Source: Earliella scabrosa
Taxonomy: Eukaryota > Basidiomycota > Agaricomycetes > Polyporales > Polyporaceae
Assembly (NCBI GenBank): GCA_022605405.1
Contig: JABYQQ010000001.1
Coordinates: 1,612,001-1,676,000 of the forward strand
DNA: 64,000 nt
Reading direction: 5' to 3'
A program made the translations under genes and the position numbers. The notes under the pieces are model-generated. The model made no database searches. It had not been told where the DNA came from and was given only the letters and a program-made list of their open reading frames with translations. Positions within the stretch are counted from its first letter, which is position 1. Each line of letters starts with the position of its first letter. This document shows, one piece after another, positions 9,795-51,588 of this stretch.

Positions 9795-9979
9795 GCATGA
9801 TCACACTCACCTCGGACCGGGTCGACGTCACAGAACTGACCGAGCTAACGTACTCATCCTCCTGCTCGAGGGCGGCCTGAATGGTGCCAGACGACACGCA
9901 CGTCGCTAAACGGGCCAGTCTTGACCATACCCCCGTACGTAGCATGTCCGAGAAGGAGTGTGTTTAGAGAGAGAGGATA

Positions 9980-10258
9980 CTGTACCATTTCGACCCATTC
10001 TTCGTGTCACGCGTCCCAAGGGGGTCTGAAGGTGAATAATAAGAGGTCCGTCACGCGTCCCAAGGCCCTCTGAATGTCTTCGCCGCTAAGTGTCACGCGC
10101 GCTTATACGGCGCTTAACGCGTTTTGGCAGGGGGTGGCAAGCCACTGAAGAGAATGTTACGTTTTGTCCCATGGTCACAGGGAGGTCGCCGAGCATGAAT
10201 ATTCAGAATTTTGGTGTCACATGTCCCACCCCATGAATAATGGGTCGAAATGGTACAG
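9980..10258. mobile_element. Short TIR element (MITE), 279 bp
   Basis: The left end at 9980 begins CTGTACCATTTCGACCCATT. The reverse complement of the right end at 10258 begins with the same 20 bases, and 24 of the first 27 agree. Both ends abut TA (9978-9979 and 10259-10260), consistent with a Tc1/mariner-type target-site duplication. There is no coding frame. Inside are two direct copies of GTCACGCGTCCCAAG (near 10006 and 10050). It is probably a non-autonomous element mobilised by a mariner-like transposase elsewhere in the genome. Confidence 0.75.
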
Positions 10259-10895
10259 TACGTGCTGGTGGAAAAGAACGAACGGAAGAGACCAAGTTGA
10301 ATATCGCTTACAGCCTGGAAACCCGAGCACTCGGCAGGCTAGACCATTAAGCGCGTTCCCTGACACGGTCACGTACACCGCGACGCGCGACAGGCGCCCG
10401 CAACAACGAGTCGGGGCGCCGCCTTCCACAAGAGGTTAAGCATTTTGCATCGCTCGCACTGCGTCATATTCAACACATTGTGCCAGATGGGGGTCCGCGT
10501 GCCATGACAGGTTAGCATGTGGCTTGTGCGATGATTCAAGTTATTCCCATTGGTGGCGCGCCACTGTTCCACTTCAAGGGGGTCGGGTGACTGTGGGGCA
10601 ACAAACGATGGGTGAGTTGACCCACAAAGAATCCACGCATACTGTACAATCATTCAATGCGCCTTCTTAGCACGCTTCTAGGGCAGTGCGACACACTTCC
10701 TGACCCCAGAAGCGGGGTCGCTCGCTGGATAGCTCCTCCGCGATATCCACCGGGCGAGAGTCAGGTGCTCGATTGCGAAGACGCGACGGTCGATGTCATA
10801 ACGTTGGTGCACGACTCCGGCCAATCCCTCCTGGCACATAAAAAGCTCGGTTCTCTGGGGAGGGGACGTCAGAAACTCGTCATCCTTCCTTCACC
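10259..10895. other. Intergenic, probable promoter of the CsbD-like gene
   Basis: No coding frame is supported. A TATA-like CATAAAAAG lies near 10838, about 60 bases upstream of the ATG at 10896. Confidence 0.4.
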
Positions 10896-17633: not shown

Positions 17634-19210
17634 CCCAGTGAAAACCGGGGGGATTCCTGGCGATTCTGTAGGATGTTCGCTTAGTTGGCAGAAGCGCTCT
17701 GTGGGAATCGCAGAGAATGCTCGTGAATCGCGAAATTGAGACAAATCCCGAGTGTGGAAGATTGCGAAAGATTCTGTGCGACGTCGGCTACAACATATGC
17801 TTGAGAATCGTTCTGAGTCTCCTCCACAAGCTCACAGCGCCCACGCGCTGACATTCTCTGGGATTCTCGAAGACAATTTTCATTATGCGCAGTCATGATT
17901 GTCTACGATTACAAATCTCTATGTATGGACTAGAAAGAAGGGGCTATTACTGTACCACTGACAGTGAACGAGAAGAAGTTGATGCCTGTAGTGGGTATGT
18001 GAGTTCATTGTTACACATAGGCGGCATACACGGGAGGTATGAGACTTACTTTGGTGACTTCGCATGCCAACTTCAAGCAGTACTGTTTCAGTTGCTGGGA
18101 CGGAGTTCTTGCCGTCAGCATCATCAAGCAAGACAACCAGTACATATGACGGACCTCTCGTTACTCAGAAGACAGATCCTGGCCTGCTTCGGACTTGGCA
18201 GATGCTTGATCTGCACAAGTCTTTCTAACGGCGGCGCTGCTATTGGTTATATCAGCAGTTTACGAGCAACAGAGGCCTGGAGGGATGCACACAGTGGCGA
18301 AGTGGAAGACAACTCACAAAGGTTTGGTCACGGGTATATGACCAGAGCCCACAGCTCTGTCAGGTCGTGCTGCAGGTGCCGGTGTCTCAAGTGTGCCGGA
18401 TGTTGCGGGTGTAGGTGCAAGTGCAGGTGTGGATGCAATGGTTGGTGCGGGTGTGGGCAAGGCAGACGACGCGAGGATAGGAAGACACACAAATTTTTCG
18501 GAGCCATATGTCGGAACTTTTGGGCGTCTATCCCGATGCATCCCGATGGCCTTTTGCATCCGGATGCACTTGCTATCTCCCTATCGAAAATATCATGACA
18601 CTTAGTTGCATCATGAAACTGTAGTATGGTACTGTATGACTGCACTATACGACCTACTTGCCAGGAGATGGAGCGTAGCAATGTCAGGAGGAGGCGAAAG
18701 TCGGGCGCTCAATGGCCTTTCCTCTGGATACCCGTGGGAAAGTTCCGACATATTCTTGATGGCTTGATCCTCGTCCTGTTGAGTGAATCTCACTCTGGTT
18801 GCGAGCGCGGCACGAGTGGGGAGCGGGCAAGGCAGACGAGGGAACGCGGGCACGGGACGCGGGCAAGGCAGACGAGGGGACGCGGGCAAGGCAGACGAGG
18901 GACAAGGCGACTCAACGAGGCGCGCAAGGCAGACAACGGCGCGGGCGCCACGTGCAGGCAAGGCAGACGACGCAGAGACTCAGAGCACTCAGCAGACAAA
19001 GCAGAGAGTCGCTACAAGTGTATTACGCGCGGTTGTTGTAGTTGTTACAGACTCCAGAGCACTGCCAGTACTGGCTGCATACTACAGAATCGTTGTGAGT
19101 CGCAATCAAGCGCCCATAAATGCTGAGTATCGCGCTCCATCGTAGAGAATCGTGGGAACAATCCATTAAATCGTTCTAAGTCTTTCTCCGTCCCCCGCGT
19201 TTTCACTGGG
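17634..19210. mobile_element. Non-autonomous TIR element, 1.58 kb
   Basis: The left end begins CCCAGTGAAAAC followed by CGGGGGG. The reverse complement of the right end reads CCCAGTGAAAAC followed by GCGGGGG. Both ends are bounded by the direct repeat ACTCAGC (17627-17633 and 19211-19217), a 7 bp target-site duplication. Both subterminal regions are packed with GATTC/GAATC motifs, about a dozen in the first 260 bases and more near the right end. Such motifs are typical transposase-binding repeats of hAT-like elements. No transposase frame is present. The middle carries a G-rich minisatellite. The right edge stops 70 bases before the ATG of the dehalogenase gene. Confidence 0.7.
18815..18975. 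repeat. GGGCAAGGCAGACGAGG minisatellite
   Basis: At least five imperfect copies of GGCAAGGCAGACGA in about 160 bases, with spacers such as GGGACGCG. A further copy lies upstream near 18460. Open frames reading through it are low-complexity artefacts. Confidence 0.75.
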
Positions 19211-27879: not shown

Positions 27880-27924
27880 GCAGGAGGCGGAGGAGGACGA
27901 GGAAGACGAGGAGGAGGGCAAGGT
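27880..27924. repeat. Purine tract beside the insertion site
   Basis: A run of GGAGGA/GAAGACGAGG repeats directly abuts the left target duplication of the DUF6589/RecQ element. Confidence 0.6.
27916..27924. repeat. 9 bp target-site duplication, left
   Basis: GGGCAAGGT, identical to 34325-34333 on the other side of the element. Confidence 0.85.
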
Positions 27925-28042
27925 TAGTCTCGTAACCAGCCGATTAGGGCCCGTCCAAAAGAGGCAACGAGAAACGAGACAAGGAAGAGACGGGCCCTAA
28001 TCGTCTGGTGAATTTCGTATAGGCGGGTAGTGGATAGTCACG
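27925..28042. repeat. Left terminal inverted repeat with stem-loop
   Basis: Outer block TAGTCTCGTAACCAGC, then a perfect 15 bp inverted repeat (27941-27955 CGATTAGGGCCCGTC with 27989-28003) closing a 33-base loop that contains CAAAAGAGGCA and GAAACGAGA. The inner block CGTCTGGTGAATTTCG follows. Loop and flanks match the right TIR, while the stem sequence does not. Confidence 0.85.
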
Positions 28043-28194
28043 GTCGTCACGGACGTCACGGACACGTGTCCGCATCTGCTGCCCTCGTTCGCGCGATTGA
28101 ATGCGCTTCGAGTCCTCCATGTACTATACAGCGGGCGCACTCAGCTCATCGTGCCAGCTACAGCAATGAAAGACTTGACTTACGCTCACCCGCG

Positions 28195-30934
28195 ATGTCT
28201 GCGAACGCGTCCGCTGCCACTCCTCGCCCTGTCCCCGAGGCTACTACACCTACTGCCTCGGACACCCGACCGAGCGACTCCGTTGACCCTATTGACCACC
28301 CAGACAGCTCATCAGCCGCGTCGACCGGCCCAACAGTGCATGAGAACGAGCGGGTGGCCAGTGAAGACGGCATGTCACCTCATCATCGCCGCACGAAGTC
28401 CTACAGGGCCTACCATGAAGATCGAGGGACTCTGGTCGACACGGTTCACGCGGTTCTTGGCTATATGCGCGACAAGAAGATCGACCTCCCTTTGCTTCTC
28501 TGGGCTATGAGCTACAACGTCTCGGAGCTGGTACCAGACGAGACTGTCAAATTCGAACGCGTCGCACTGCTCTCTAGCCTCGAGCTTCCTGGCTTGCTCA
28601 AGTCCTGGCACAAGCCTCCGCGCTCTCACGGCCGTGGTATACGGACAAAGGGCGCAGCAGCAGCCGTCGACGACTTTGTCTTGGATCGCGCTGGGGATAT
28701 CTTGGATCAGGAGATGGCCGCGGTTGGAGAATACATGCGCACCTCTGTCGCTGAGCTCTCCGCAGAAGCGCTTCTGTCCATCAAGCTGGCCACAGTCAAG
28801 GAAGAGGTCAAGAAGCGCGCCCCGAACACCTGGAAGTTGCTGCTGCGATGCGCGTGGACCGCGCGCCAGGCGAAGGAGAACAAACTGAAGGATCCGGAGA
28901 CGGTATGCTACGCTGCGATTGATCACTAGTCAGGATTGTGCTTATTTGATGTGACCACAGCCTATTTTGTTCATGATCTCTATGGCGTCGTACACACGCT
29001 CTAACCGCAACAACCTCCTTCAGCGACTGATGGCTATCTACCTCAAGAGCTGCGGCACCTCGGCGAAAGCGTTCGACACACTGAACGCACTTGGCGTCAC
29101 CATGTCACAGAAGTGGGTCTACAACGCTCTTGAGCTCATCTCGGAGAAGAAGCAGGAAGAACTGTGTCGCGATATCGAGCTGTTTCCGTGGCTTGGAATC
29201 CACGACAACGTCAACTTCTCCTTCCGGGTCTTCGAACAGCGCTCGGACCACCACAACCGCTTCGACAGTGGGACTGCCGGTCTTGTTCTCGTCATCAAGG
29301 ACCCGGCTGCCGTCCGCCCAGATGCAGGCGCATATCATGCTCAGCGCGCCCTCGGTTCTCAGACGATCATCACTCCCACCGAGATCTTGAAGCTTGAGAA
29401 GGCTGCTGCGCCTCGTCTTGCTACCCGTGCAGTTGACACCATTCTTCGCATCCTCCTAGACTCCCCTGAGTTCGACTTTTCCACCTACAAGGGCAAGAGC
29501 CATCCTTCCCTCCGTCCGGCTCCGCGACCAGGTCAGCTCCGCGTCGAGGCTGAGGGCAACGTTTCACGCTATCTGCTGAAGACGATCCACGAGGAGGAGG
29601 CTAGCTATGACGGCAACGATCGTGTCATGCGAGAGTGGTTCCGTCAGCTGAAACTGAACAAGCCGGAGAAGGAGAAGCACATTGGTAGAAGCTGTGTCAT
29701 ACCTTGGGTTGGCGACCAGCTCACAGCTTCACGGCTCCGAGGGCTGGCGAACTTCCGGTGCGACGACTTCAACTCCTTTGATCGCCTCGACTGGCTAGTT
29801 CCTACATTTGGCTGGTTCCACCTCACGTTCGCATTCGAGCAGTCTCTTCATACTCAGTACTACGGCACTCGAGCTGGTCTGGGACTGGTACATGCATTCG
29901 ACATTCTCGATCGCCGAGGATTGCAGACTACGTCAACTCAAGGAACGTTCCACCATACCTTCGAAGAGGCGCTCAACCACACCATCGAGGCTCGTATGAG
30001 GGATCTCTGGTGCCTTGTAGGCAAAGTCGACTCTCTTGCTGATCTCAGGTCACGAACGCCGGAGGAACTATGCGCCCTTGCTTCATCTATCCACCGAAAC
30101 TATGCTTCTGCTCTTGCTCTTGCCCAAATGGACGACTTGCAACCCTCCTCCGCTGACAATACTAGTCCAGCCGGCACCTCCGAGTCGGCTACCAGAGCTC
30201 CGCAAGACCCTCTCGTTCGTCAAGGGATCATGTTCAACTGCGACACGCTCGACTACCGCATTCTCTGCGACGCAATCAAGTGCGGCGACGTCCAGACAAT
30301 GGAGGACATGCTTCCCCGGCTTGCCTTTCGCTTCCTCGGTGGTTCGAACAAGAACTACGCAGTGGAGACATGCGAGCTTCTGCAGTCTCTCAACAAAGAA
30401 TGGCCATCAGATCTAAGGCACGTCTGACAGGTATCCGTACCAGTAGCTGACTCAATGTTGGATTGCAGGACATATGTTCGGAAGTACTGCTGGCTTACCA
30501 ACACCAGCGGTGATCCCAACGCATGGCTACCTCACGATCGCGAGATGGAGCACAATGTCGGCGACATCAAGTATACCTATGCTGCAATTGGCCCATTCGC
30601 AACGTGGGAGTATGTCGGGAAGATCTCTCCATCCATCCCGTGTCAGCGCGATGTCAAGGATCACGTCGAGCGCGAGATCAACCACGGTGTTCGAGGAAAG
30701 TCACACACCTCACCGGCGAAGGAGGCCGACGTCGCACGTCTGCAAGCTGTCTACCGTGAAGCGAAGGCACACGTGCCGCAAGCTGGACGCACCTTGAACA
30801 GCAAGGATAAGTTTCCGGACGTCATGGAGAAGGGAGCTCGGGCTCTGGTCTCGGGCAGGGGGTATAGGCGTTGGGCAAAATATCGCATTCAGCGTCGAGT
30901 GTTTAGAGAGGAGGACTGGAACGATTATGTCTAA
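28195..30934 (+). CDS. DUF6589 protein, candidate transposase
   Basis: Three exons: 28195-28901, 28960-30417 and 30469-30934, about 875 residues. The N-terminal 80 residues are disordered. The alpha-helical part (LLLWAMSYNVSELVPDE; LLRCAWTARQAKENKLKDPE) leads into the DUF6589 core: LLQRLMAIYLKSCGTSAKAF, LGIHDNVNFSFRVFEQRSDH, IPWVGDQLTASRLRGLANFR, DDFNSFDRLDWLVPTFGWFH and TYVRKYCWLTNTSGDPNAWL with REMEHNVGDIKY. The acidic residues in IHDN, VGDQLT and MEHNVGD could form a DDE-like triad, which is inference. The second intron starts with GC (AAG|GCACGT), the only non-GT donor I needed. The ATG at 28195 is the first in frame. It ends 29 bases from the helicase stop. The role as transposase is inferred from position only. 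Confidence 0.85.
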
Positions 30935-30963
30935 CACGACGTCTGCAATGTGAATCTTCTGCT

Positions 30964-33900
30964 CTATGTAGGTCCTTGGGGTACTTGCCAGACAAGGGGT
31001 GGAATTGCGCCAGCAGACGTCCCGGGTGTGAAAGTCTCAGGACTTACTGGACCCCCGGGTGGTGCATACATCACGAACGGATCTCCCTCCGTCCGCTGCC
31101 TGACCCGTCGCTTCTGCCCTCCCGGTATGCCAGCTTTTTTTGCGGCCTGTGCTGCCTTCGCTGCCTTCTTCTCCTCGCTCAGCTTCTTCTTCGCTTCCTT
31201 CTCCGCGCGGACGCGCTCATCTACCACTGATAGGATTGTCAGAATCTCAGCGCCATGGTCAGCTGCAAATGGCCACCGGGGCACGGCAGCTTCGATGTCT
31301 GCAACCGTTCGAAGGCGTGCTTGAGACGCCAGTGTCGTGAGGGTCTTGTCCGGTAGGAGAATGAGATAGCTGAACCGGCACATATGGTAGTCCCGGAGCC
31401 ATGTCTGCATCCGCCAGCGCACGAGGCGTGCTCGACATGCGAGTAGATGGTTTCCGCGACGGGTACCGGGTGGGCGCGGAGTGGCACTAGCAGGATGTGA
31501 AGAGGAGTCCTTGGTACAAGGAGATGCTACGTCCTCGCTGTCGCCCTCGGCCGTTGTGTCATGCAGCTCGTCCTCGTACTCTTCGTCTGCGGCCTCCTCT
31601 CCGGTGTCCATGCTACCTGTGATACGCTCGATCATGCGGAGAACATCGCGCTCGCGTTGAGTGAGTGGCAGACCGCTTTGGACCTTCTGTCGAATGCAGT
31701 TATCGCAGCATGGGAATTGGTCTGGCAACGTCATCAGCATGAGAAGTAACCGATGGAAGATGATATGGGCGCACCGGGCCACCCAAACGCCACACGAGGT
31801 GGATTATCAAAATACTTGTCTGCTATCTCCCGCCGGCAGCTCTGTATGTCCGCCCAGCTTCGCATTCCATCCTCAGCCTTCTTCTGGTACTCGATTGCAC
31901 CCGAGGAAATGACCTCCGCGGAAGAAACGACTGGAGAGAGTGCACTGTCGTGGTTGGCGTCTGCCATCTCCACATCGCCGTCGGTGCCATTTCCGAAATA
32001 CGGTATAGTGGTAGGCGATATAGGTACTCCATCGGCTGACCGCTTCGTGCCTTGCCAATGTTTCTGAGAGGGATAAGAACGAGCAGACATAGATTACAAA
32101 GTAGTGCACTCACCGGGTTCGATGCGGCGTGCGGTGCATCCGCACTGGCAGCAGACTCTCGCGCCTCGAGACTCATACCCTCCGCATGCCCAACAGACCC
32201 TACGCCCACAGAGTCCTCCGAAGCCAGCAGCTCCCTTGCATCACCTGCACGCTCACTTGCTGCGCTATCCCTTGCTGCCAGTGCATCTTTCTCGCCTCTC
32301 GCTTTCGTCGCGCCCGTCTCATCGCCGTCACCCTTCGTGCCCTTGCCCTTCGTGCCCTTGCCCTTCGTGCCCTTCTTACTTGTGCCCTTCGCCGTATTCT
32401 TCGTACACTTGGCGTTCGGCGTGGGTTTCACGGACTTTGTGGGCTTTTTGCGGTTTCCGTTGCCTCTGTCCTCCGTACCCTGCGCTCCGGCTGTTGAGGT
32501 CCTTGCATCCGTCGTGGCATCAGCGCCGTTCGTGGCGCTTTTCTCGGCATCCGGGGCGGTAGTGGTAGATGCCCCGTCTCGAGCGGTGCTGACGTCCTGA
32601 TGCAAACCATCTTCGACGTCCGACGAAGTCTCGATGACATCAGGATGGACCGGCGGCGGGGCGGCTTTCTTAGATGATGGCGGCACTTTGATCTGAAAGA
32701 TGCTGGGCTCGACGAGCAAGATGGCCATGGCAGGCTGTCCAGCACGCCCGGCACGTCCCGCGCGTTGCATCCAGACAGACAGAGAGCTGGCGGCCAGGAA
32801 TTGAACCGAGATATCGATATCTGGAATGTCCATACCCTGCAAATATAATTCATCAATTCCGAACTATCACTGCAGAGCGAATAGCATACCATGCCTGCAG
32901 CCTCTGTAGCGCACAGAATATTAACTTCGCCCTCACGGAACTTGCACATGACACGCCGCCGTGCTCGCTGCCCACGCCCGGCGTGCAGAAAGTCAATTTG
33001 AGTGCTCACGTCCTCAGGCACGGACTCCCGGAGATACCGGTAGGCTGAGAATGCTAGATCCCGGGTGTTGAAGAAAATGATGGTGCGCGTGAGCTTACCG
33101 CCTGTGCGGATATCGCGCGTCATGAAGTCGAGAACCGGGAGGGATGATTGCGCAGCTCGCAACCGATGGACTATGGGTGTGATGTTGGGACGATCGTTAC
33201 CGAGGTTCACCAAGTAAGTTGTAGACTCGCTGAACTCGAGCTGCGTGAATACAGCCCTGAGCATGAAGGGCGGGAGTGTGGCTGAAGTGAGAAGAAAGGC
33301 CTTGCGACCGCCGACGAAGCTCCGCATACTGCAGAGCTCGCTGAACTTCTTACGGAAGCTATCGCCCCACTGCGAGACACAATGCGCTTCGTCAATCACA
33401 AGGTAGAGCACATCGCGCATGAACGCCGGGTTCTTGATGAGCGTTGAGAACAACGGGTGTTCGAGACACATCTCAGGCGATGTGATCAGGACGCGGAACG
33501 CTTTCGCGTTGACTCGCTACTCGTGCATAAGCTCACCGTAACTACTAGAGCAGATGATGAACCCACTCACATTGTGCAGACTCTTCCCATAGGCCTCCCC
33601 GTTGATCGCTGTGGCAGCCAGACCCATGCTCTCAAATCTCCGTGCCTATGCCGCCAATTCACGTCAACCGTCTCTTATTCAAGTTGGATGATACTCACCT
33701 GGTCTCGTTCGAGCTCATTGAGCGGGGATATAATGATGACCATCTTCGTCTTGGCCTTGTCTAATAGCAGCGGCATGACGAAGGGCATAGTTTTGCCCGC
33801 CCCAGTGCCCGCTATAACCGCCGTGTCCAGTCCAAGAAGAAGGGCCTCTGCAACGTCTACCTGCCAACCATACGGCACCCTTCCTCCAAACGCCTCCGCA

Positions 33901-34052
33901 AATGTCCTGATGATCTCGTCACGAACCTCCTGCGAGTTGTAGCCGCGTTCCTTCGCAGCAAAATCGCGAGCACTCTCCAGCAGTCTCGCTGAATGCTCTA
34001 TGCGCTGCGCGTGCGTGCTTGCTGTGTCGGATGTGCTAGCAGGCAGGTCCAT
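30964..34052 (-). CDS. RecQ-type DNA helicase of the element
   Basis: Multi-exon gene starting at the ATG at 34052. Superfamily 2 motifs are all visible: FGGRVPYGWQVDVAEALLLG, Walker A AGTGAGKTMPFVMP, ISPLNELERDQ, VLITSPEM, DEAH in VIDEAHCVSQWGDSFRKKF (a RecQ signature), SATLPPF, TIIFFNTRD, CATEAAGMGMDIPDI and VWMQRAGRAGRAG. A RecQ-like zinc region follows as SCRREIADKYFDNPP and CCDNC. It is separated from the core by an insertion of about 170 residues rich in A, S, T and K, with KGTKGKGTKGKGTKG. The C-terminus has a Lys/Ala helix (KEAKKKLSEEKKAAKAAQAA). The expected activity is 3'-5' ATP-dependent DNA unwinding. Its enclosure by the TIRs and convergence with the DUF6589 gene suggest a job in transposition. 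Confidence 0.85.
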
Positions 34053-34193
34053 GTAGGAAGAGCAAAGTAAAGAAGATATATTCGAGCATTGCACGGCGGA
34101 TGGACAAGGAGAGAGCTGACAGTGACCGAGTTGCCAGCAAAGTCGATGGACGTCAAGGGAGAACGCTCGGGCCGGTGGGCGCTTGCCGCGGAG

Positions 34194-34324
34194 CGTGACT
34201 ATCCCACACCCGTCTATACGAAAGTCACCAGACGTTATAGGCCAGTCTCTCCCGGTCTTCTCGTTTCCCCTGCCTTTTTTGGACCGGGTGAGACTGTAGC
34301 CTATAGCGGCTGGTTACGAGACTA
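34194..34324. repeat. Right terminal inverted repeat with stem-loop
   Basis: Mirror of the left TIR. Here the stem is longer and imperfect: 34236-34257 pairs with 34282-34305 (arms contain AGTCTC and CCCGGTC, and GACCGGG and GAGACT). The loop of 24 bases keeps the AAAAAAGGCA and GAAACGAGAA blocks on the minus strand. Confidence 0.85.
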
Positions 34325-34333
34325 GGGCAAGGT
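34325..34333. repeat. 9 bp target-site duplication, right
   Basis: GGGCAAGGT, identical to 27916-27924. Confidence 0.85.
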
Positions 34334-48832: not shown

Positions 48833-50977
48833 AACTTAGACACTTACGTAGTTCACAGGTTCGGAAGCAGCGACGGAAGTCGTACTACACCCGAGACGAA
48901 AATCCATGAGATTGTGACGCTCACCTTGCCCATTGCCACACGAAGTGCATCTCGCTGGCCCAGTTGACGATACCGTTGCTGAGATAGTGAGCATTGGACT
49001 GGATCAAGTCCAAAGCATGACGCATCAACATCAACATGCTGGCCGATCACACAGCTTCAAGCTCCGTTTGAATCGTGGTTACCAGACTCTATAGAATTGA
49101 TCTCACACGGCTTCACCTTGTAACTCAGATTGAAGAGGCGCTCCGATTGGTGTACTAGGCGCCGTCCTGCGTTCCCTCGCAACTTCAAGTTCAACCACTG
49201 GTCAGTGGTACTATGTCGACCGGAACTCAGGACCACGCTGTCTGACGGATGCGATACGTCGCTTGTTTTCTGCTGCGCAACGCACGGGTACTTCGCTTCC
49301 GAGTGACCACGGGCTCTCCGGCGATCTATGTACCCAAGCACTCCGTCGGTGAGTGTCGGCCGAATTGACGATTGACGTCGTAGCGCAGCTTAGCCTAGCT
49401 GAGCCTATGAGGCTGCGGAGTTATTGCACCGACGCATCCAACAACTGCCAAGCAGACAAAGCGTGGTCCGGGTCCAGTTGAACTCAAGGCGGATGTGGCA
49501 CTCACTGCCACTCAGCACTGCCATCAAACGGCCACTGCGCTCTCTTTCTCACTGACTCTCAGAAGTTTTCACCGCATCTTTCACAGAGAAACTGCGCGGC
49601 TCGTCTGTTGCCAGCACCTCACGAAAATTCATGCGATCGCTGTCCACGACTCCACTCGACTCCGATGGTTCGTGGTTTGATTCCCGATGGCCGTTCCGTA
49701 GCCCGTACTTACGGGGCTATCCCACAGCGGAGGGCGTAACGTAAGTACTTCGCTACTGATACGACATTTACGTATCCAGTCTTCATGACCGTCTATTCTG
49801 GACAGGGAAGACCCACCATACACCGTTGGGGTACCATCTCGTCCATGCGTAAGCACAAGGTTCAGCTCGCACACTTTTACTCAGCTGCAACGTCGATGTG
49901 CTCACGAGGCAACCCCCTCTCACGAAGACCAACTATGCACTGTACATACGTCTACTCCGAGTCCGGATCATCGATACTCGTCGAGGAGCGCAAATTCCAA
50001 TTGCTATCGGATCCGAGAAACACCGCCACACCCTCCCACCCAGGCCGCCGGCCGCGACTTCCAGCGGTCTCGTCGGGTCAAAATACATAGCTACATACTC
50101 TATCATGGCGGTCATAGCGAAGCACAGCATGGGAGGGCGCGTCTCTCGTGCTTGCAAAACACACTAAAACACACTGGGCACGCGCTGATCATACGGATAG
50201 ACATTAACTCCCCTTGGGCGACCCGATGGTACGCACGGAACGCATGGACACTCCGTTTTACTCCATAACTCATCCCAGAAATGACTGACGCGGCATTGAG
50301 GCGTAGGACACGACACACATCCCCAAGGCAGTTTGACGGGAACCACAACCGGAGTGATGATCCCGTCCTGTCGGTCCTGAGTCCTCCGGTGGCCGCCAGC
50401 TGCGCATCACTACCTGAGCCCAACGCAAGCGTTGCTGGGAATGGTAGGGCGATGAATGCGATGCAGGAAGTCCTAGATGGGCGGACGCAGCGAGTAGCCA
50501 AGGCCACCACGGTACTGCGCTCTTCCCTCGCTCTCCAGCATCGAAGCTCGCAGTCGGCCACCTGGCTCGTCACCTGCTCTCGTTGAACTTGAAACGGCAG
50601 CGAACCGCTAGATTCGTAACGCGATGTATTTGATAGTCGCTAGAAATTGCGGTTAATCTCAGCGCTATCCTCGAGTCGAACGATGTTCAAACGAATTCGG
50701 CGTGGGATGGGATGCACGTCTTCAGTCTAGACTAGCACAAAAGTGGGGTGCATAAGTAATACGACGCACCCATGGCTTCTGAGGCTTTCTAAGGTCGTTT
50801 CGGTTTCAGTTGCGCAAGCGATGCCGTCTTGCGATGCAATGATCAGATGGCGGAAGGATGTGCGGGCCACTGTACGTGACTGCCAGCAGCCAAAGCAGGC
50901 GCCCGAGAGCGGCCGCTCAGTGCCGCTCCGATCTCTGCGCCAATCCCAGAGGGTGCGCAGCGGACCAGAGACTATTA
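48833..50977. other. Intergenic, about 2.1 kb
   Basis: No gene is supported. The frame at 50281-50586 (101 residues) is isolated and shows no family pattern. Confidence 0.45.
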
Positions 50978-51435
50978 AAGCTGGTTCCGAAATGAATGCC
51001 CGACATCATTGATCGCACAAAGCGCGCGACCAGCACAACTTGTGTCCCCCAAATTCTGAAGCACCGAACGCGACCACGTTCTCACTAGAAAGCTACAGGT
51101 ATTTTCTCAAGCATCCGGGTACTCCGTGTATGTTAAAATCAGTGCCTTTGGGGGCATTCGCGGCCCGCAACGTCCAGTGGAAATCCGCCATGTTTGGGCG
51201 CTTGACTTCCAAACGCTTAGCGCGCGATGTGCTGTCTCCTTCCGTCTGCTGTCTACTGGTGTCAACGACGAGTTGAAGAGCCATTCTCAACGTGAAATGC
51301 TTGAGACGACACTTGTAGCCAGTTGATCATGCCTGACAAGTCAAGGACGGGAGGAATCTCAGGTGAGTGCACTTTGGGTGCACTGGCGCGTTTTGTTTGA
51401 TCGGAGTCGTCGGGCATTCATTTCGGAACCAGCTG
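50978..51435. mobile_element. Short TIR element (MITE), 458 bp
   Basis: After the first base, the left end reads AGCTGGTTCCGAAATGAATG then CCCGAC, and the reverse complement of the right end reads the same 26 bases. Further in, GATC, ACAAA and CGCGC blocks also correspond. Both ends abut TA (50976-50977 and 51436-51437), the target duplication of Tc1/mariner-type elements. No transposase frame is present. It lies about 150 bases upstream of the ATG of a Zn2Cys6 regulator and so inside its probable promoter. Confidence 0.78.
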
Positions 51436-51588
51436 TAAGTACCATTTCGTGCTCACCATGCTGGAATCCTCTTCTTCACTCCCACCCTCATCTCGACTAG
51501 CCCACACGGCTCACTCGCTTAGCTTCAGAACCTGTCCTCCGCCACCACCCAGATTGCCATCACCCCAGACTCAAAGACTTAAAGACTG

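What the first reader, a model, noticed from the sequence alone, without database searches (positions are those of the whole stretch)
27925..34324. Complete two-gene transposon pairing a DUF6589 protein with a RecQ-type helicase
The sequence shows an exact 9 bp direct repeat at both edges, terminal inverted repeats of about 120-130 bp starting TAGTCTCGTAACCAGCCG, and only two genes inside, convergent, with stops 29 bases apart. RecQ helicases are normally chromosomal repair enzymes. DUF6589 is a fungal family without an assigned function. Their joint enclosure by TIRs and a target duplication implies they move together. The DUF6589 protein is then the best transposase candidate, with conserved acidic positions in IHDN, VGDQLT and MEHNVGD. 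I know of no named superfamily with this composition. A 9 bp duplication recalls Mutator-like elements, but no Mutator transposase is recognisable.
Basis: partly seen in the sequence, partly recalled or inferred. Interest (0 to 1): 0.93.

Follow-up and report, generated by a model that had tools for sequence, protein, structure and literature searches.

The report
RecQ-carrying mushroom transposon, AcademH type
This is a complete, recently active jumping DNA element in a bracket fungus that carries its own likely cutting enzyme and a DNA-unwinding enzyme; it fits an already described but little-known class (AcademH), and its ends carry hairpin-forming sequences that deserve a test.

Summary
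Confirmed: window 27925-34324 is a 6.4-kb transposon with an exact 9-bp target duplication (GGGCAAGGT), TIRs of about 121/134 bp and two intact convergent genes, stops 29 nt apart: a DUF6589 protein (876 aa) and a RecQ-type helicase (941 aa, identical to a public Earliella scabrosa protein). It moves: 15 of 19 two-ended copies of this or a closely related end family have exact 9-bp duplications, one copy nested in another. Nine of 11 DUF6589 loci in the genome have a RecQ-like helicase within about 2.5 kb; the seven delimited pairs show 9- or 10-bp duplications. A DUF6589 homologue's predicted structure (pLDDT 92) ranks DDE transposases/recombinases first. The claim that no named superfamily fits is not: helicase-encoding Academ elements (AcademH; 9-10-bp duplications; RecQ/DEAD helicase in fungi) are in print. 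Membership by transposase sequence could not be tested. Possibly new: DUF6589 as their transposase (no held paper names it), and a hairpin-forming palindrome inside 11 of 13 distinct ends, differing in sequence from end to end. It may be a helicase substrate (untested); the AcademH paper, which I could not read, might already describe it.

The parts
27916..27924 (.). left target site duplication GGGCAAGGT
   Evidence: exact match to 34325-34333; neighbouring bases differ
27925..28045 (+). left terminal inverted repeat, starts TAGTCTCGTAACCAGCCG
   Evidence: local score 108, shuffle maximum 31; first 118 bp recur at 91-100% at the ends of about 600-bp derivatives
27935..28009 (.). left-end palindrome: arms 27935-27955 and 27989-28009, 95% complementary
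   Evidence: self-stem score 18, maximum of 200 dinucleotide shuffles 9
28195..30934 (+). DUF6589 (PF20231) transposase gene, 876 aa, exons 28195-28902, 28961-30417, 30469-30934; putative catalytic D318 (HDN), D488 (GDQLT), E749 (MEHNVGD)
   Evidence: predicted fold of the homologue P0001 (67% identical to exon 2) matches DDE transposases
30964..34052 (-). RecQ-type helicase gene, 941 aa, exons 34052-33699, 33645-33571, 33516-32890, 32836-32114, 32063-31775, 31721-30964
   Evidence: identical to public protein P0241 of Earliella scabrosa
34191..34324 (-). right terminal inverted repeat
34227..34314 (.). right-end palindrome: arms about 34282-34314 and 34227-34257; stem sequence different from the left end
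   Evidence: self-stem score 18, maximum of 200 shuffles 9
34325..34333 (.). right target site duplication GGGCAAGGT

Best explanation
It is an autonomous cut-and-paste DNA transposon of the AcademH type in the polypore Earliella scabrosa. The DUF6589 protein is the DDE transposase: it binds the two ends (shared motif TAGTCTCGT..ACCAG.CG ... CGTCTGGT), cuts the element out and joins it to a target with a 9-bp (in a relative 10-bp) stagger; host repair fills the gaps and leaves the duplication. The RecQ-type helicase is an accessory protein of the element, most likely unwinding DNA at the palindromic ends or at the excision/integration gaps. Shown: element boundaries, duplications, intact genes, copies and derivatives in the genome, and joint occurrence of the two genes. 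Predicted: the RNase H-like DDE fold. Inferred: chemistry, end binding, the step at which the helicase acts, and membership in AcademH.
Confidence: 0.85

Rival explanations
1. A new DDE superfamily that resembles AcademH only in its helicase and TSD length (convergent acquisition of RecQ).
For: No Academ sequence could be compared; DUF6589 carries no transposase name in Pfam and no held paper mentions it. KolobokH shows that RecQ was acquired in a second superfamily.
Against: TSD of 9 or 10 bp, RecQ/DEAD helicase and fungal host all match what is printed for AcademH and fungal Academ.
Confidence: 0.12
2. A Mutator-like element (9-bp TSD) that captured a host RecQ gene.
For: MuDR elements give 4-10-bp TSDs (passage).
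Against: No MULE domain at E up to 1 in Pfam. The helicase is not a single capture: it accompanies 9 of 11 DUF6589 loci here and recurs with DUF6589 on 11 contigs in other fungi.
Confidence: 0.02
3. KolobokH, the fungal Kolobok lineage with a RecQ helicase.
For: KolobokH encodes a RecQ helicase and is known only from fungi; one rhodophyte Kolobok even has RecQ on the complementary strand, as here (PMC9587614 passages).
Against: Kolobok duplicates TTAA (recalled); here the duplications are 9-10 bp of unrelated sequences. In KolobokH the helicase is described downstream of the transposase domain; here it is a separate convergent gene.
Confidence: 0.01
4. The terminal palindromes are kept by mutation (intra-hairpin template switching or conversion homogenises the arms), not by selection for a structure.
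For: Arms are self-complementary while sequences differ between ends, which conversion would also give. The right ends of the C4 and C8 elements lack a palindrome, and 15 of 24 further ends matching the motif do not fold.
Against: The palindrome starts at nearly the same place (position 10-16) in 9 of 9 ends folded, and the terminal 118-130 bp match the window element at 91-100% in derivatives that are 79-91% alike over their whole length.
Confidence: 0.4

Closest known systems
AcademH (Academ superfamily; Kojima 2020, Mob DNA 11:15; not held, known here through passages of PMC10045372, PMC10799480 and PMC6416283)
   Same: encodes a helicase of DEAD/RecQ type, 9- or 10-bp TSDs, present in Basidiomycota, Academ listed among DDD/E superfamilies
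   Different: transposase sequence relation not tested; whether published AcademH ends carry palindromes could not be checked; one element here has divergent gene order
KolobokH (Kolobok superfamily)
   Same: RecQ helicase, fungal
   Different: TTAA duplications (recalled); helicase described downstream of the transposase domain
hAT (Hermes), P element, RAG1/Transib transposases
   Same: predicted RNase H-like DDE domain with a helical stretch before the last acidic residue
   Different: about 5-10% identity in the structural alignments; 8-bp (hAT, P) or 5-bp (Transib) duplications (recalled); no RecQ gene (recalled)
Helitron2 (two terminal hairpins; PMC3627910 passages)
   Same: hairpins at both ends, compensatory changes reported there, helicase encoded
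   Different: rolling-circle enzyme; ours has a DDE-type fold, long TIRs and 9-10-bp TSDs

Membership tests
AcademH | TSD of 9 or 10 bp | tested here: met
   window 9 bp; 15 of 19 two-ended copies of this or a closely related end family exactly 9 bp; six further full-length elements: five 9 bp, one 10 bp. Against: three related ~670-bp copies with TGG ends gave 8 bp
AcademH | encodes a helicase (RecQ/DEAD type) | tested here: met
   DEAD + Helicase_C; RecQ/BLM best PDB hits
AcademH | DDD/E transposase | tested here: met
   by predicted fold only: AlphaFold model of homologue P0001, pLDDT 92.3; first 47 of 50 VIA-align rows DDE transposases/recombinases. Not an enzymatic test
AcademH | transposase groups with known Academ transposases | not testable with these tools
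   I had no Academ transposase sequence; Kojima 2020 not held, nor two other papers I looked up by DOI from memory
AcademH | occurs in Basidiomycota | tested here: met
   host inferred as Earliella scabrosa, Polyporales; range in Basidiomycota stated in PMC10799480
KolobokH | TTAA target duplication (recalled) | tested here: not met
   9-10-bp duplications
Mutator/MULE | MULE transposase domain | tested here: not met
   only DUF6589 (and one sub-threshold Ctr match in exon 1) at E up to 1 in Pfam for the three DUF6589 exons; remote relatives could be missed
Helitron | no TIR/TSD, HUH Rep-helicase (recalled) | tested here: not met
   TIRs and TSD present; no Rep domain in the Pfam scans

The most novel reading that the evidence does not exclude
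AcademH-type elements transpose through structured ends. Each end carries a palindrome that can extrude as a hairpin or cruciform, recognised by shape rather than stem sequence, and the element brings its own RecQ helicase to melt or resolve these hairpins during excision or strand transfer: a helicase-assisted DDE transposition pathway.
Probability: 0.2. Interest if true: 0.75.

Novelty: new member of a known kind. Interest (0 to 1): 0.42.

Why it matters
It gives the Pfam family of unknown function DUF6589 (PF20231), met in many Agaricomycetes (hits, mostly named there as hypothetical or uncharacterized proteins, or unnamed), a concrete identity: the likely DDE transposase of RecQ-carrying transposons. 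It also warns that RecQ/BLM-like genes beside it are transposon genes, not DNA-repair paralogues; PMC6416283 makes a like warning for fungal Academs. The palindromic ends, with a helicase in the same element, make the open question of what the helicase does directly testable on a compact system with natural 600-bp derivatives.

Full report
Observation. The element at 27925-34324 is as described. The 9-bp duplication GGGCAAGGT is perfect. The TIRs share their first 18 bp and align over 121/134 nt with gaps, score 108 against at most 31 in 200 shuffles. Two genes are recognisable inside, convergent, stops 29 nt apart; the other mechanical ORFs were not searched. The DUF6589 gene has three exons (second intron GC-AG) and codes for 876 aa, the helicase gene six exons and 941 aa; both read without internal stops. 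The helicase model is identical to a public Earliella scabrosa protein on a contig of the length of contig C1, and a DUF6589 record of the same species lies on a contig of the length of C5, so the host is taken as Earliella scabrosa, Polyporales.

It moves. The genome (51.7 Mb, 48 contigs) holds 22 exact copies of the 18-bp end and none of the reversed control, and 74 BLAST matches to the element. From the 20 loci I could pair both ends of 18 further insertions (15 of this end family and 3 of a related one starting TAATCTCG); L071, L072 and L073 were dropped for lack of a pair. With the window that is 19. Fifteen have an exact 9-bp duplication, one has a single mismatch, and three do not (C7, C33, and C31 with 7 of 9 matching); no length of 8, 10 or 11 gave a match within one mismatch. 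One copy (C23) is a 1359-bp deletion derivative whose two parts match the window element at 100% (rounded), so movement is recent. About 600-bp derivatives share only the terminal 118 and 130 bp with it, at 91-100%, while eight of them are 79-91% alike to the ninth over their whole length. At C20 a 601-bp copy lies within another copy and duplicates 9 bp of it; without the inner copy the outer is 627 bp, close to its relatives of 600-626 bp.

The two genes travel together. PF20231 scores over its cut-off at 11 loci; 9 have a RecQ-like helicase hit within about 2.5 kb, 8 convergent and one (C5) divergent; the two others match the profile only in part. Of 10 helicase hits 9 are at these loci (only best candidates are scored, so host RecQ genes may be under-counted). 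Seven of the nine pairs were delimited: window 9 bp, C1 10 bp, C14 9 bp, C5 9 bp, C4 9 bp, C8 9 bp, and C6 9 bp across a nested 18.8-kb insertion. For C4 and C8 the right end was picked by the duplication, with TAGTCTT at both right ends in support. C30 showed no ends in the fetched stretch and C1:4045 was not fetched. In other fungi, 11 contig lengths are shared between the 120 DUF6589 hits listed and the 120 helicase hits listed (compared by eye; ten with the same species name, one unnamed). On long contigs this shows only the same contig; but Trametes cinnabarina g48/g49 and Hermanssonia centrifuga 2v3675/2v3676 are neighbours by gene number, and in Agrocybe pediades both lie on a 5,312-base contig.

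What it belongs to. PMC10045372 (passages): AcademH generates 9 or 10 bp TSDs, AcademX 3 or 4, related to helicase and nuclease. PMC6416283 (passages): fungal Academ copies carry DEAD/DEAH helicase and recQ_fam domains and are frequently annotated as host genes. PMC3627910 (passages): RecQ helicase in Academ. PMC10799480 (passages): AcademH in Basidiomycota, Ascomycota and Mucoromycota. Composition, TSD and host fit AcademH; KolobokH shares the helicase (PMC9587614 passages) but not the duplication. The AcademH paper itself is not held, so the transposase relation is untested; I put the name at about 0.85.

Ends. Just inside the terminal TAGTCTCGT, 11 of 13 distinct ends tested (window, C1, C14, C5, C4, C8 elements and one derivative family; C1's two ends are identical and counted once) contain a palindrome: self-stem score 10-22 against a mean near 6 in 200 dinucleotide shuffles each, with at most 1 of 200 reaching the observed score; each also exceeds its complementarity with the other ends. 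The right ends of C4 and C8 show none. Folding energies agree for 10 of 11 ends compared with 426 interior windows of four elements (0 or 1 as stable), C14_R being weak (44 of 426; 8 of 200 shuffles as low); the window outside the element also has stable spots (up to 8 of 249 windows as stable as these ten ends; 45 of 249 for C14_R). One derivative end (L064 left) has lost the stem (z -1.1). Without the shared outer 8 nt, cognate arms score 10.8 on average and non-cognate arms 4.1 (arms there were chosen from folds, a bias that avoids). Among 24 ends in 20 stretches chosen from the 91 motif matches (10 in the reversed control), 9 fold with z of -2 or lower and 15 do not, so the feature is not universal among sequences that merely match the motif. 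Arms kept complementary while sequence drifts can mean selection for a hairpin or cruciform, or arm conversion; I cannot separate them.

Mechanism. Most likely: cut-and-paste by a DDE transposase with a 9-bp stagger (inferred from TSD and fold), derivatives arising by internal deletion, and a helicase acting at the ends or gaps (inferred). At which step the helicase acts is unknown.

Verdict. Real, complete, recent, and most likely of a described kind; the useful additions are the identity of DUF6589 and the palindromic ends.

Noticed in passing
G000:C6:1406701-1431399 (L075, L102, L103, L084): An element 91% identical to the C1 element is split by an 18.8-kb insertion flanked by CCCA on both sides, with similar inverted ends (both contain CAAAAAT), long internal tandem repeats and an integrase core domain (PF24764, E 3e-47): perhaps a giant Ginger-like element.
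   Followed up: partly
L085, L086, L087 (C1:3616297, C20:637398, C25:202937): Three ~670-bp copies with closely related ends starting TGGTCTCGTA have 8-bp instead of 9-bp duplications.
   Followed up: partly
L077 (C5:2958075-2965308): The C5 element carries the two genes divergent, outward from the middle, while the other eight pairs are convergent; its target CATATGTAG lies in a palindrome.
   Followed up: partly
window 9978-10260, 18506-18753, 50975-51438: Three short inverted-repeat units (arms 29, 31 and 53 nt) that look like unrelated MITEs.
   Followed up: no
P0150 (Ganoderma boninense): A public record named PRP28 RNA helicase carries DUF6589; perhaps a transposon gene misnamed or fused in gene prediction.
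   Followed up: no
L079 (C2:1154567): The only one of ten helicase hits without a DUF6589 locus nearby; inverted arms of about 98 bp (73%) surround it at L079 2826-4745, possibly another element or a remnant.
   Followed up: no
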